DNA of 64,000 bases. Source: Hyalangium gracile. Lineage in GTDB: Bacteria > Myxococcota > Myxococcia > Myxococcales > Myxococcaceae. Below the pieces are notes generated by a model that saw nothing but the letters and a program-made list of their open reading frames with translations, did no database searches and was not told the DNA's origin. Position 1 is the stretch's first letter. Each line of letters opens with the position of its first letter. Below are positions 28,344 through 31,708 of the stretch, in pieces. A program made the position numbers and the translations under genes. The stretch lies in NCBI RefSeq assembly GCF_020103725.1, contig NZ_JAHXBG010000041.1:1-64000 (forward strand), read 5' to 3'.

Positions 28344-29888
28344 TTGGGGGCAATGCGGCTCACCCTGCATCGTGGCGTCAGCCTGGCGGTCCTGGCCTCG
28401 GCTCGGACCGAGGCGGAGCACCATGAGGACCTGGGGTGCAGCATCCAGGGGCCCGCCTCCAGGCCGGTGCGGCGAGCGCACGTCGCGTTGAAGCGACAGC
28501 TCGCGGTGCTGGGAGCGGAGCGCGCGCTGCGGGAGGCGCGCTCGCTGGTTCGCTGGCTGGAGGAGACCCCGCGCTACTCCGCGCTCTGTGAGGGGAAGAA
28601 GCGGCGCGCAGGGCGCAGGGTGCTGCGGCGCGAGGTGCTCTTCCCGGACGCGCGGCGCCATCAGCCTCGGGTGCTGCACCTGCGCCAGGAGCAGCTCGGG
28701 CTGGACGTCCCCGTGGGGCGGCAAGAGTGGCCGGCGATCGCTGACCTGTTCGCGACGCTCGCGCGGGGGGCCAGTCGGGCCGAGCTCCGAGCCCTCTCCG
28801 CGGCTCCCCTGGTGGGCGAGCTGATCTCCGACATGGCGGGGGCAGGGTGGCTGGTTCGCCACGAGGGGCCGATGGCGCTGCCCGTGCCCGGAGCGCTGTT
28901 CGTCGGCCACAACACGGTGCTCGTCGCGGGCCGAGAGGGGCGGGTCCTGGTGGATCCGTACTTCCGACCGATGAGCGGGATCGATCCGCCGGGCTATCCG
29001 CCGGTGCACCCGCGCGATCTGGGGCGGATCGACGCGGTGCTCATCACCCACTCCCATGGAGACCACTTCCACCTGGGCTCGCTGCTGCAGCTGCCGAGGG
29101 ACACTCGCGTCTTCGTCCCCGCGGTGGAGCGCGAGAGCCTCTTCTCCACGGACTGCGTGCTGCGGCTGACGCAGCTCGGCTTCACGCGCGTGGAGCCCCT
29201 GCGCTGGGGCGAGGAGCGTCAGGTGGCGGATGTCACCGTCCGCGCGCTGCCGTTCCATGGCGAGCAGCCGACCGATGAGCAGGGCCTCTATCCGGACCTC
29301 TTCAACGAGGGGAACACCTGGCTGGTGCGCACGCCGGGCTTCTCGGCGGCCTTCTTCGCGGATGCCGGGCACGACGTGCGGGGCGACATGCGCGGCGTCT
29401 GCCGCCGCGTTCGCGAGGAAGGCCCCGTGGACGTGCTGTTCTGTGGCGTGCGGGGCTTCAAGCTGAAGCCCCTCTTCTTCGGATTCACCACGCTGGATGC
29501 GTTCCTGGTCGACGTGCCGCGCGACGCACTCACCCGACCGCAGCAGCTCATGGCCGGGCCCGAGGAGGCGCTGGAGTTCGGGGAGCGGCTCGGCGCGCGT
29601 TGCGTCGTCCCGTGCGCCGACGGTGGAGCCCCGTGGTACTGGCGCGAGGGCATGGGCCCGCGCTACCCGGGCTATCCCGGCGAGCCCGTGAGCGGCGCCA
29701 GCACCCTGGACGAGAACCCGGACGCCGACCCCTATCCGGAGCGGCTGGAGCAGATCCACCGGCTGCGGAGGCGAGGCCCTCGGGCGCTGCTGCTCAGACC
29801 GGGAGAAGGCCTGCTTTGGCGAGGGAGGAAGGCGCCTGCGGTCGTGCGTCAGCCGGGGTTCATCTGGCCGTTCGGTGGGCCTCCGTGA
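28344..29888 (+). CDS. Metallo-beta-lactamase-fold hydrolase with winged-helix-like N-terminal segment
   Basis: Start is TTG at 28344 with GGAGGAG six bases upstream; ATG at 28353 is the alternative. The 514-residue product has the zinc motif THSHGDHFH (235-243) and later His and Asp residues (LPFHGEQP, FFADAGHD) of an UlaG/RomA-like MBL hydrolase. Residues 1-175 are extra. Within them, about 125-172 (WPAIADLFATLARGASRAEL to GELISDMAGAGWLV) resembles a small winged helix of the PqqD kind, used elsewhere to bind peptides. That part is by eye only. It ends three bases from the convergent sulfotransferase gene. No signal peptide, so cytoplasmic. Confidence 0.82.
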   Translation: MGAMRLTLHRGVSLAVLASARTEAEHHEDLGCSIQGPASRPVRRAHVALKRQLAVLGAERALREARSLVRWLEETPRYSALCEGKKRRAGRRVLRREVLFPDARRHQPRVLHLRQEQLGLDVPVGRQEWPAIADLFATLARGASRAELRALSAAPLVGELISDMAGAGWLVRHEGPMALPVPGALFVGHNTVLVAGREGRVLVDPYFRPMSGIDPPGYPPVHPRDLGRIDAVLITHSHGDHFHLGSLLQLPRDTRVFVPAVERESLFSTDCVLRLTQLGFTRVEPLRWGEERQVADVTVRALPFHGEQPTDEQGLYPDLFNEGNTWLVRTPGFSAAFFADAGHDVRGDMRGVCRRVREEGPVDVLFCGVRGFKLKPLFFGFTTLDAFLVDVPRDALTRPQQLMAGPEEALEFGERLGARCVVPCADGGAPWYWREGMGPRYPGYPGEPVSGASTLDENPDADPYPERLEQIHRLRRRGPRALLLRPGEGLLWRGRKAPAVVRQPGFIWPFGGPP

Positions 29889-29891
29889 GCT

Positions 29892-30896
29892 TCATGACGC
29901 ATCGGGGGGCCTCGCGGCCTCCAGCGCCTCGTAGGGTGGGCGCACCCACCGCTCCACCTGCTCGCGGGCGGCGGGCTTGAGCGTCTGCTGCTTGACGGCG
30001 GTGTCGTCCTGGAAGGGCAGCACGGGGTTCTTGGCATCCAAGAGCGCGGCCTCGCGCATGCGCTCGAGCTCCTCCGGCGTGAAGTCCACGCCCCAGTGCG
30101 CGGGCAGGCTGTTCAGCACGGCTCCCGGGAGCTGGCGATAGTGCACCAGGAGCGCCGGGCTGAGCCGCTCTCGCCAGGCGCTCAGGGCGGCCTCGCACAG
30201 GCGGCCGAGCACCCGCGCGCCGTACTCCTCGAGCGTCATCGTCTTCAGGGGCTCGGGCCCCAGTCCCAGCAGGCCCGGCTCGAGCACCCCAGGCAGCATG
30301 TGGGCGCCCTTGTGCCCCTGGTGCGAGGCCATGATCTCCACGGGATCCCGATAGAGGAAGATCCAGGGCACTCCGGGGAAGGCTCGCTGGAGGAGCGGAA
30401 GCTCCAGCACGTGCCAGGCGTCGAACTTGATGAACAGGTGCTGCTCCTCCGCCTGTCGCTGGCGCCCGAGCGCCGCCACGATGCCCCTCAGCCAGTCGAT
30501 GCGCTGGGCCTCCGTGACGCCGGGCACGCGCAGGTGCGCGCGCAGCACCGAGTCGATGGGGCCAGCCTCGGAGAGGACCACGTTGCGCGGGAGCGCGGCC
30601 AGCATCTGAGAGACCAGCGTCGACCCACAGCGCGACAGGTGGAAGATGAAGCCACGAGGCCGCAGCGATGGCTCGAGGCCGCTCGGCTCGAGCAGCGACT
30701 CGACGGGTGTCTGGGGGCGGAACAGCAGGGAGAACGGGTGGCGCAGGCAGCGCTCGATGGTCTCATCGAAGAAGGGCTCGGTGAGGCGCAGCCCTCGCAG
30801 GTGGCACCAGTCCACGAAGAAGCGGGAGTCCCTCGGGTAGAGCCGGATGGGAATCCACTCGGCGGAAGGGAGGGAGGTCTGCTCCAGCCCGCTCAT
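29892..30896 (-). CDS. Sulfotransferase family protein
   Basis: A 334-residue PAPS-dependent sulfotransferase-like protein. The 5'-phosphosulphate-binding loop FHLSRCGSTLVSQM (about 95-108) and the 3'-phosphate motif WIFLYRDPVEIMASH are clear, and the intervening helix KFDAWHVLELPLL fits the fold. The frame is open upstream, but the ATG at 30896 is fixed by an ATGA overlap with the hydroxylase stop codon (TGA 30895-30893), implying coupled translation. The C-terminal end (VDFTPEELERM) is normal helix. Sulphate acceptor is unknown; the coupled dioxygenase suggests both may act on one product. Confidence 0.88.
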   Translation of the reverse strand: MSGLEQTSLPSAEWIPIRLYPRDSRFFVDWCHLRGLRLTEPFFDETIERCLRHPFSLLFRPQTPVESLLEPSGLEPSLRPRGFIFHLSRCGSTLVSQMLAALPRNVVLSEAGPIDSVLRAHLRVPGVTEAQRIDWLRGIVAALGRQRQAEEQHLFIKFDAWHVLELPLLQRAFPGVPWIFLYRDPVEIMASHQGHKGAHMLPGVLEPGLLGLGPEPLKTMTLEEYGARVLGRLCEAALSAWRERLSPALLVHYRQLPGAVLNSLPAHWGVDFTPEELERMREAALLDAKNPVLPFQDDTAVKQQTLKPAAREQVERWVRPPYEALEAARPPDAS

Positions 30897-31708
30897 ACCC
30901 ACCTCTCCCGCCAGCTGCTTCGAGCCTCCTGGAGGACCGCCTGGAGCTCCTCGGCGGTGAAGGCGTGGCCCAGCTCCGCGCCCAGGCGCTGGGCGAGCTC
31001 GGCGAAGGCCTGGGGCTGCGGCGTCTCCAGGAGCTGACGCTGGAGCGCGGGCTCGGCCAGGACGCGCTGGATGAAGCGCTCCAGCTCCGCGCGGGCCACG
31101 GCGCGTGCGAAGAGCGCTCGCAGCCAGTCGTTCAGCACGCAGTCCACCACCAGGTGGACGCGGTCGGTGCTCCCCAGGTTCTCCACGCGGTGGGGCAGGT
31201 TGAAGTCGAGGTACCAGCACTCTCCCGTCCCGAAGGGGACGCGCTGGCCCGAGAGGTGGAACTCCACCTTCGGGTTGGTGGTGATGGGGATGTGGAGACG
31301 GACCTCTCCATCCTCGTAGCCCAGGTTGTAGTCGCGGTGCTCCTTGATCCGGGCGCCCGCGGCCAGCTTCAGCAGCCGCGCCGAGAGCAGGGGACACCCG
31401 AAGACGCTCAAGGCCTCGCGGACCGCGGGGCAGCGGTCGAGCATCGGAGTGTCGGCGAACGCGTCTCCCGCCGTGGGATCGGGGTAGAGCGCATTCGCCT
31501 TGCCGCCGACGGCGCGCAGGGCCACGCCGCTCCACTCGCCCTGGTAGTAGCCCTTGTTGAAGTGCGGCACCCAGTCCTCTGGAGCCAGCCGGTCAAGATC
31601 CTCTCGCAGGCGCGCCGTATCGAAGCGCAGCGGCAGCCGGAGCCGATCCGGGATGGAGGGGCCGGGCGCCCCCTCGTTCCGTGGAGTAAGCATTGAGCGA
31701 GGAAGCAT
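30893..31708 (-). CDS. Aspartyl/asparaginyl beta-hydroxylase family dioxygenase with Nif11-like C-terminus
   Basis: A 271-residue Fe(II)/2-oxoglutarate dioxygenase. GGAG five bases before the ATG at 31708 supports the start; MLTPRNEG at 31693 lacks a ribosome site. The double-stranded beta-helix part (about 25-200) has IKEHRDYNLGYEDG with the HxD metal ligands, HIPITTNP, and the second histidine with its neighbourhood in LPHRVENLG, then a 2-oxoglutarate-arginine candidate in DRVHLVVD. Residues 206-271 (RAELERFIQRVLAEPALQ, then GAELGHAFTAEELQAVLQ) resemble the Nif11 domain, better known as a leader of ribosomal peptide precursors. It overlaps the sulfotransferase start by four bases. Confidence 0.85.
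   Translation of the reverse strand: MLPRSMLTPRNEGAPGPSIPDRLRLPLRFDTARLREDLDRLAPEDWVPHFNKGYYQGEWSGVALRAVGGKANALYPDPTAGDAFADTPMLDRCPAVREALSVFGCPLLSARLLKLAAGARIKEHRDYNLGYEDGEVRLHIPITTNPKVEFHLSGQRVPFGTGECWYLDFNLPHRVENLGSTDRVHLVVDCVLNDWLRALFARAVARAELERFIQRVLAEPALQRQLLETPQPQAFAELAQRLGAELGHAFTAEELQAVLQEARSSWRERWV

What the first reader, a model, noticed from the sequence alone, without database searches (positions are those of the whole stretch)
28344..31708. Three-enzyme neighbourhood: Nif11-tailed dioxygenase, coupled sulfotransferase and an MBL hydrolase with a winged-helix-like head
An Asp/Asn beta-hydroxylase-family dioxygenase and a sulfotransferase overlap by ATGA and are read together, and an MBL-fold hydrolase converges on them with a three-base gap. 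Two features suggest peptide-directed chemistry: a Nif11-like segment at the dioxygenase C-terminus and a PqqD-like winged-helix segment in the MBL protein. Hydroxylation followed by sulfation of one peptide or protein is a natural reading, but no precursor-peptide gene was identified in the window.
Basis: partly seen in the sequence, partly recalled or inferred. Interest (0 to 1): 0.62.

Follow-up and report, generated by a model that had tools for sequence, protein, structure and literature searches.

The report
Hydroxylase–sulfotransferase pair sharing a Nif11 domain

Summary
At 29892-31708 (-), an Asp/Asn-beta-hydroxylase-family Fe(II)/2OG dioxygenase ends in a true Nif11 domain (above Pfam's cut-off; the only one found in the 11.7-Mb genome) and overlaps a sulfotransferase by ATGA. 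Relatives show a three-part cassette: dioxygenase, Nif11, sulfotransferase. In 195 Myxococcota genomes the module's Nif11 profile hits exactly the 28 genomes that hold the strong dioxygenase family, beside it. In 25 of 28 Nif11 is a separate ~68-aa gene between the enzymes; in 3 (window, Hyalangium versicolor, Pyxidicoccus fallax) it is fused to the dioxygenase. In Acidobacteriota/Chloroflexota 11 of 13 sulfotransferase genes have Nif11 adjacent or fused, once to the sulfotransferase itself. The Nif11 has no Gly-Gly and no core peptide, so it is best read as a leader-like recognition subunit shared by a hydroxylating-sulfating pair, not as a precursor. The substrate is unknown. The MBL protein is widespread in myxobacteria, linked to the module only in the window's genome and H. 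versicolor, without a detectable PqqD/RRE; it resembles the CmlA diiron oxygenase. My literature searches listed no paper describing the module.

The parts
31097..31708 (-). Fe(II)/2-oxoglutarate dioxygenase domain (residues 1-204 of the 271-aa protein), Asp/Asn beta-hydroxylase family, nearest solved relative by sequence L-proline cis-4-hydroxylase; H124, D126, H173 and R183 invariant in 17 aligned sequences
30896..31096 (-). Nif11 domain plus a short tail ending WRERWV (residues 205-271), fused to the dioxygenase here, a separate ~68-aa gene in 25 of 28 strong myxobacterial loci
30893..30896 (-). ATGA overlap: stop of the dioxygenase-Nif11 ORF and start of the sulfotransferase; ATGA stands at the Nif11 stop in 29 of 29 loci checked
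29892..30896 (-). sulfotransferase, 334 aa, with PAPS-loop-like FHLSRCGST (motif role recalled)
28353..29888 (+). MBL-fold protein, 511 aa; NOT part of the module: widespread myxobacterial gene whose MBL domain aligns with the diiron oxygenase CmlA

Best explanation
The locus encodes a conserved three-component module: dioxygenase, Nif11 domain, sulfotransferase. The dioxygenase (inferred from family and conserved residues) hydroxylates a side chain; the PAPS-dependent sulfotransferase (inferred) then puts a sulfate on a hydroxyl, most simply the new one. The Nif11 domain is not a precursor peptide here. It works like a RiPP leader that has lost its core and become a shared recognition or activation subunit: it docks on the sulfotransferase, sits next to or is fused to the dioxygenase, and brings both enzymes to one polypeptide target encoded elsewhere. 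Shown: domain identities, co-occurrence in Myxococcota, gene order, overlapping genes, repeated fusion to the dioxygenase and one case of fusion to the sulfotransferase. Inferred: the docking role, the order of the reactions, that the target is a protein or peptide. Unknown: the target.
For: Nif11 over the Pfam cut-off in the window, helical in a confident model (pLDDT 87.5; helices 194-218, 220-227, 232-245, 252-270). In 195 Myxococcota genomes the module-Nif11 profile hits 28 at E<=1e-4, one place each, the same 28 that carry the strong dioxygenase family; none of the other 167. In 28 of 28 of these loci Nif11 lies between dioxygenase and sulfotransferase, 25 separate and 3 fused to the dioxygenase. 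In Acidobacteriota/Chloroflexota Nif11 is adjacent or fused in 11 of 13 sulfotransferase genes, a dioxygenase is next to 8 of 13: the tighter bond is Nif11-sulfotransferase. The fused-to-dioxygenase state needs at least 2 changes on starred branches, 5 by parsimony; in L083 a Nif11-like stretch is fused to the sulfotransferase N-terminus (15.4 bits with the module profile, 0 of 2000 shuffles as high; no Pfam Nif11 hit). Flanks differ between Hyalangium, the Myxococcus-type loci and G102, only the cassette is shared. PAPS supply: ATP-sulfurylase/APS-kinase overlapping Nif11 in L080, APS kinase in Pedobacter L013 and beside the L084 sulfotransferase. A 31%-identical sulfotransferase in Azospirillum overlaps a PqqD/RRE gene in a cluster with an HprK-like and a lasso-cyclase-like protein, which supports peptide-directed chemistry.
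Against: The closest solved dioxygenase relatives include enzymes of free amino acids and small molecules, so a small-molecule target is open. No substrate gene was found. Two Acidobacteriota genomes (G196, G198) hold the dioxygenase without a sulfotransferase of this family and without Nif11 in the 5-6 kb contig held; four Pedobacter loci hold dioxygenase and sulfotransferase without detectable Nif11; so Nif11 is not needed in every member of the wider family. Outside the window Nif11 matches to Pfam's model are uneven: L009, L079, L080 and L085 pass the cut-off, L005, L078, L081 and the second L077 locus match below it, L082, the first L077 locus and L083 give no hit; these rest on the module's own profile. 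G005 has a dioxygenase-sulfotransferase pair with no detectable Nif11. Docking is not tested by any structure.
Confidence: 0.45

Rival explanations
1. Small-molecule pathway: the dioxygenase hydroxylates a free amino acid (for example a proline-like one) and the sulfotransferase makes its sulfate ester; Nif11 is a stabilising or regulatory subunit.
For: Nearest solved homologues by profile are L-proline cis-4-hydroxylase (E 5e-19; Foldseek rank 1), then a proline oxidase/proline 3-hydroxylase entry and a nucleoside-antibiotic beta-hydroxylase.
Against: Link to Nif11, a domain whose described role is as a peptide leader (PMC2887384, passages); the related Azospirillum sulfotransferase overlaps a PqqD gene in a lasso-type cluster; similarity to human AspH, crystallised with Factor X peptides, is tied by Z (16.8 against 17.0).
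Confidence: 0.25
2. The Nif11 protein is itself the substrate: its conserved C-terminal tail (R..W...W) is hydroxylated or sulfated, a borosin-like arrangement with fused and split forms.
For: Both tail Trp residues are present in 29 of 29 Nif11 sequences checked (28 myxobacterial, 1 acidobacterial); fused and split versions exist as in borosins (recalled); no other precursor gene is visible.
Against: Both Trp are kept in only 5 of 10 Acidobacteriota/Chloroflexota tails (L076, L078, L079, L085, L092) and none in L080, although the enzymes remain; in L083 the domain lies ahead of the sulfotransferase with no free C-terminus; the residue after the second Trp is partly dictated by the overlapping start codon.
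Confidence: 0.12
3. The pair decorates surface or fibre proteins: in Acidobacteriota/Chloroflexota the phage-tail-collar-domain proteins that cluster with it, in Pedobacter the giant adhesin next door.
For: Collar genes lie within 8 kb of 9 of 13 Acidobacteriota/Chloroflexota sulfotransferase genes; of the other four, two (L085, L092) lie near a contig end or on a 5.9-kb contig. Two genes annotated tail fiber, one of them scanned and a Collar match, also in the Azospirillum cluster. Pedobacter pairs follow a >2000-aa secreted-type ORF and a PorP/SprF-like ORF where the stretch reaches (L013, L015, L016; named by eye). A Diaphorobacter dioxygenase-sulfotransferase fusion overlaps a divergent IPTL-CTERM gene.
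Against: No collar gene in the myxobacterial stretches held, which are 64 kb for the window, about 8-10 kb either side for ten loci and only 1.5 kb for the rest; in the window's genome the single collar gene is on another contig, and collar genes occur in 15 of 18 myxobacteria that lack the module.
Confidence: 0.15
4. One reading: a three-enzyme unit with a peptide-binding MBL hydrolase.
For: Physical proximity in the window's genome and in H. versicolor.
Against: MBL linked to the module in 2 of 19 genomes having both; 45 of 64 MBL genomes lack the strong dioxygenase and 9 of 28 module genomes have no near-full-length MBL orthologue listed; same-genus G001, G004 and G005 keep SH3-MBL-5'nucleotidase without the module there; no PqqD match in 11 of 11.
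Confidence: 0.03

Closest known systems
Nif11-derived RiPP precursor family (N11P, TIGR03798; Haft et al. 2010, PMC2887384, passages seen)
   Same: Same leader domain, similar length class, small ORF beside tailoring enzymes
   Different: No Gly-Gly cleavage site, no variable Cys/Gly/Ser-rich core, one module copy per myxobacterial genome, fused C-terminally to the enzyme in several lineages, below the family's curated cut-off (21.8, 19.5, 25.9 against 32.3)
Aspartyl/asparaginyl beta-hydroxylase family PF05118, L-proline cis-4-hydroxylase (4p7w) and AspH
   Same: Jelly-roll fold, HxD...H and Arg conserved
   Different: Carries or is coupled to Nif11 and a sulfotransferase; substrate unknown
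PAPS-dependent sulfotransferases, PF13469; among RiPP enzymes MbnS of methanobactins (PMC3621798, passages seen)
   Same: Family assignment, PAPS-loop-like SRCGST; APS-kinase genes next to some relatives
   Different: No solved structure matched by profile at E<=0.01; MbnS is described there as PF00685; a Nif11 partner is not in the passages seen
Enzymes with a leader or core fused in cis (engineered lanthipeptide synthetase with fused leader; borosins; both recalled, not looked up)
   Same: Leader-like or precursor segment joined to its enzyme, with split forms
   Different: Different enzyme chemistry; no core peptide here

Membership tests
Nif11 domain (PF07862) | Profile match above curated cut-off | tested here: met
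   30.4 bits against 23.8 in the window protein; only match at E<=0.001 in the genome
Nif11-leader RiPP precursor (TIGR03798 / N11P) | Profile match above curated cut-off of 32.3 bits | tested here: not met
   21.8 bits; stand-alone relatives L005 19.5 and L009 25.9
Nif11-leader RiPP precursor (TIGR03798 / N11P) | Gly-Gly cleavage motif followed by a variable core | tested here: not met
   Tail is R..W...W[IVLP]-stop in 29 of 29, no Gly-Gly, no core; feature as described in PMC2887384
Nif11-leader RiPP precursor (TIGR03798 / N11P) | Peptidase-containing ABC exporter in the genome | not tested
   Not searched
Asp/Asn beta-hydroxylase family (PF05118) | Profile match and conserved metal/2OG residues | tested here: met
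   62.5 bits against 22.6; H124, D126, H173, R183 invariant in 17 sequences
L-proline cis-4-hydroxylase | Hydroxylates free L-proline | not testable with these tools
   Nearest by sequence and Foldseek, 27-28% identity
PAPS sulfotransferase (PF13469) | Profile match above cut-off | tested here: met
   27.8 bits against 27, marginal; activity untested
PqqD/RRE domain in the MBL protein | Profile match or winged-helix fold at residues 120-175 | tested here: inconclusive
   No Pfam PqqD hit in 11 of 11 homologues at E<=5; AlphaFold2 model too poor
CmlA-type diiron oxygenase (MBL protein) | MBL domain with His-x-His-x-Asp-His and a Glu in place of a usual His ligand (ligand roles recalled) | tested here: met
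   Family profile hits CmlA at E 6e-18 over the MBL domain only, LPFxGE Glu and later Asp aligned; H233, H235, D237, H238, E304, D337 invariant in 11; metal and activity untested
Borosin-type self-modifying enzyme | alpha-N-methyltransferase with its core in cis (recalled) | tested here: not met
   Enzyme is a dioxygenase; tail not kept throughout

The most novel reading that the evidence does not exclude
A RiPP-type leader that has shed its core and become a permanent, modular subunit: Nif11 moves between stand-alone, dioxygenase-fused and sulfotransferase-fused states and directs sequential hydroxylation and O-sulfation of a protein encoded elsewhere, a bacterial counterpart of tyrosine-type protein sulfation but on an enzymatically made hydroxyl.
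Probability: 0.25. Interest if true: 0.78.

Novelty: new variant of a known kind. Interest (0 to 1): 0.55.

Why it matters
Nif11 is described as a leader on peptide natural products, above all in cyanobacteria; [quoted passage not shown] Here Nif11 is a conserved part of an enzyme pair and carries no core peptide. If it is a recognition subunit, that gives a handle on how leader domains evolve into enzyme parts. It also points to a possible protein modification, hydroxylation followed by sulfation, in Myxococcota, Acidobacteriota and Chloroflexota (in Bacteroidota the pair occurs without detectable Nif11), and the fused form is a ready-made construct for testing it.

Tried and rejected
MBL as a third component: rejected. 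PqqD/RRE head on the MBL protein: no support by profile; the fold prediction from a two-row alignment failed, so this is not excluded. Collar proteins as the myxobacterial target: collar genes occur in 15 of 18 module-negative genomes, and the one in the window's genome is unlinked. Precursor ORF in the 85-base gap upstream of the dioxygenase or upstream of the Azospirillum PqqD gene: nothing convincing by eye. Nif11 in the N-terminal extension of the G005 sulfotransferase (L087) looked likely by eye but is not detected by the module profile nor by Pfam; not used as evidence. Nif11 in the Pedobacter, Oscillochloris and two dioxygenase-only acidobacterial loci: none convincing at low threshold. 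Fold comparison: the dioxygenase domain fills the list, so the Nif11 part is barely tested there. Literature: searches for Nif11 with sulfotransferase (5 papers), Nif11 with hydroxylase and fused (3), 'tail collar domain' with sulfotransferase (0), 'Nif11 domain' (6), Nif11 with nitrile hydratase, leader peptide and precursor (45, 15 listed), beta-hydroxylase with sulfotransferase and RiPP (2), Nif11 with myxobacteria (4), lasso peptide with sulfotransferase and HPr kinase (2) gave no title or abstract start that describes this module; a ninth search, on CmlA (10 papers, 8 listed), was not followed. I saw passages of PMC3621798 and PMC2887384 only, the rest as listings; the library lacks most subscription papers, so absence from print is not shown.
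Full report
What is in the sequence. The window is the first 64,000 bases of a 69-kb contig of an 11.7-Mb genome, nearest in the searches to Hyalangium versicolor (83% identical dioxygenase). On the minus strand, 30893-31708 encodes a 271-aa protein and 29892-30896 a 334-aa protein; they share the four bases ATGA. On the plus strand an MBL protein ends at 29888, three bases before the sulfotransferase stop. Pfam gives Asp_Arg_Hydrox (62.5 bits) and Nif11 (30.4 bits, cut-off 23.8, residues 206-255) for the first, Sulfotransfer_3 (27.8 bits, cut-off 27) for the second, and Lactamase_B families for the third. 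The Nif11 match is the only one at E<=0.001 in the genome.

The module in relatives. A profile of the dioxygenase finds 40 of 195 Myxococcota genomes at E<=1e-20. The 30 best-scoring matches became loci L029-L058; the first 28, L029-L056, one per genome, form a strong group at 292 bits or more, and G005 (L057, 234 bits) and G024 (L058, 228 bits) score lower. In 28 of 28 of the strong loci a Nif11 ORF lies between the dioxygenase and the sulfotransferase. In 25 it is a separate gene of about 68 aa that starts a few bases before the dioxygenase stop in another frame, with its stop 196 bases after that stop in 25 of 25; ATGA stands at the Nif11 stop in all 28 and in the acidobacterial L009. In 3 (the window, H. 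versicolor and Pyxidicoccus fallax) Nif11 is in frame with the dioxygenase. A search with the Nif11 profile alone finds 28 of 195 genomes at E<=1e-4, one place each: the same 28 genomes, beside the dioxygenase. Pfam's own Nif11 model matches 22 of 195 genomes; some of its places lie outside the module.

Outside Myxococcota. The sulfotransferase profile found 9 of 396 Acidobacteriota and 2 of 301 Chloroflexota genomes, both samples drawn from larger groups and both including the genome used as centre, 13 genes in all. Eleven have Nif11 next to or fused with them: stand-alone in L077 (first locus, about 210 bases away), L078, L079, L080, L081, L085 and L092; fused to the dioxygenase in L076 (whose dioxygenase is frame-broken), L077 (second locus) and L082; fused to the sulfotransferase in L083. 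Two have none detectable (L084, L086). A dioxygenase is next to 8 of 13. So Nif11 is bound more tightly to the sulfotransferase than the dioxygenase is. These calls rest on the module's own profile. Against Pfam's Nif11 model, of eleven module proteins scanned besides the window's, L009, L079, L080 and L085 pass the cut-off, L005, L078, L081 and L077 (second locus) match below it, and L082, L077 (first locus) and L083 give no hit. L083's extension scores 15.4 bits with a profile trained without it, against a maximum of 9.2 in 2000 shuffles; the extension in G005 (L087) is not detected.

Repeated fusion. On a dioxygenase tree of 43 rows the fused, separate and no-Nif11 states need 6 changes in all; the fused state needs 5 by parsimony and at least 2 on starred branches (quick method with long branches that meet, so counts beyond two are soft). 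P. fallax nests among Myxococcus with separate genes.

Only the cassette is shared. Flanks in Hyalangium (MsrB, SH3-like, MBL), in the Myxococcus-type loci (including G022) and in G102 showed no homology to each other, while the three parts remain. In G001, G004 and G005 of the same genus the SH3-MBL-5'nucleotidase frame exists without the module there, so in Hyalangium the module most likely sits in a formerly empty place.

The MBL protein. Near-full-length orthologues (E<=1e-100 in the listing) occur in 64 of 195 genomes, 45 without the strong dioxygenase; 19 genomes have both, linked in 2, the window's and H. versicolor (linkage read by me from the places listed). In H. versicolor a further ORF separates it from the sulfotransferase. 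Pfam finds no PqqD in 11 of 11 homologues at E<=5. The family profile hits the diiron oxygenase CmlA at E 6e-18 over the MBL domain, aligning a conserved LPFxGE and a later Asp. That these are CmlA's diiron ligands is recalled.

What the Nif11 part is. It lacks the Gly-Gly and variable core that mark Nif11 RiPP precursors (PMC2887384, passages) and, in the three proteins scored, falls below the TIGR03798 cut-off. In 29 of 29 sequences (28 myxobacterial, L009) it ends in a tail with two Trp four apart; among the ten Acidobacteriota/Chloroflexota tails that are not ahead of a sulfotransferase in one chain only 5 keep both. The window protein folds with confidence (pLDDT 87.5): a jelly roll, then a helix 194-218 running into three further helices, the last (252-270) holding the tail. 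The dioxygenase part resembles L-proline cis-4-hydroxylase (Foldseek rank 1; VIA Z 17.0, rmsd 2.6, 175 aligned), a nucleoside-antibiotic beta-hydroxylase (Z 17.7, rmsd 2.8, 158 aligned) and AspH (Z 16.8, rmsd 2.9, 162 aligned); these are tied.

Chemistry and target. PAPS-making genes stand beside some relatives: ATP-sulfurylase/APS-kinase directly before Nif11 in L080, APS kinase in Pedobacter L013 and beside the L084 sulfotransferase. A 31%-identical sulfotransferase on an Azospirillum plasmid overlaps a PqqD gene (above Pfam's cut-off) and is followed by HprK-like and lasso-cyclase-like proteins, both below NCBIfam's cut-offs, with a JmjC-type protein and two annotated tail fiber genes, one of them scanned and a Collar match. 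A Diaphorobacter plasmid holds a dioxygenase-sulfotransferase fusion next to an IPTL-CTERM protein. Collar genes lie within 8 kb of 9 of 13 Acidobacteriota/Chloroflexota sulfotransferase genes, but nothing ties them to the module in myxobacteria. So a protein or peptide target is likely but not shown, and its identity in Hyalangium is open.

Judgement. The finding is real and richer than described: a conserved dioxygenase/Nif11/sulfotransferase cassette with a mobile leader-like domain. It is a new variant built of known families. The MBL part of the reading falls away and the RRE part has no support.

Noticed in passing
window 28353-29888: The 'MBL hydrolase' is a widespread myxobacterial protein whose MBL domain aligns best with the diiron oxygenase CmlA (E 6e-18) and keeps a Glu (E304) in LPFxGE; it may be an oxygenase rather than a hydrolase.
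   Followed up: partly
L076, L077, L078, L080, L081, L082, L083, L086: Sulfotransferase genes of this family cluster with small phage-tail-collar proteins, mostly ending in G[IV][FY]PSRN; Pfam scans of members of these clusters gave GNAT (L078), DUF6916 and a periplasmic-binding-type protein (L077).
   Followed up: partly
L145 5649-12930 (Azospirillum plasmid NZ_CP039640.1): PqqD, sulfotransferase, HprK-like, lasso-cyclase-like asparagine synthase, JmjC-type and two annotated tail fiber genes together; the sulfotransferase is annotated as an Asp/Asn beta-hydroxylase, apparently a misnaming (no Pfam hit).
   Followed up: partly
L159 1621-3618, L160 1443-3788: Long open frames (666 and 782 aa, probably with a signal peptide by eye) contain an internal Nif11-like segment in G145 and G146; G131 and G136 have matches in frames of similar length: another Nif11 that does not look like a RiPP precursor.
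   Followed up: partly
L006 (Comamonas sp. KCTC 72670): The locus groups inside Myxococcus on the tree; the record is probably mislabelled or contaminated.
   Followed up: no
L002 9821-11197: In H. versicolor a 458-aa glycosyltransferase-like ORF (named by eye) lies between sulfotransferase and MBL; it is absent from that place in the window.
   Followed up: no
L076 7574-8657; L011 near 5117: The dioxygenase of G277 is split by a frame break, and the start of the Oscillochloris sulfotransferase is interrupted by a stop; assembly error or decay.
   Followed up: no
G000:C29:61820-62362 and 88032-88685: Two more distant dioxygenases of the same family (34-35% identical) lie about 26 kb apart in the window's genome, with no Nif11 or sulfotransferase of this family detected in the 19 kb around each.
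   Followed up: partly
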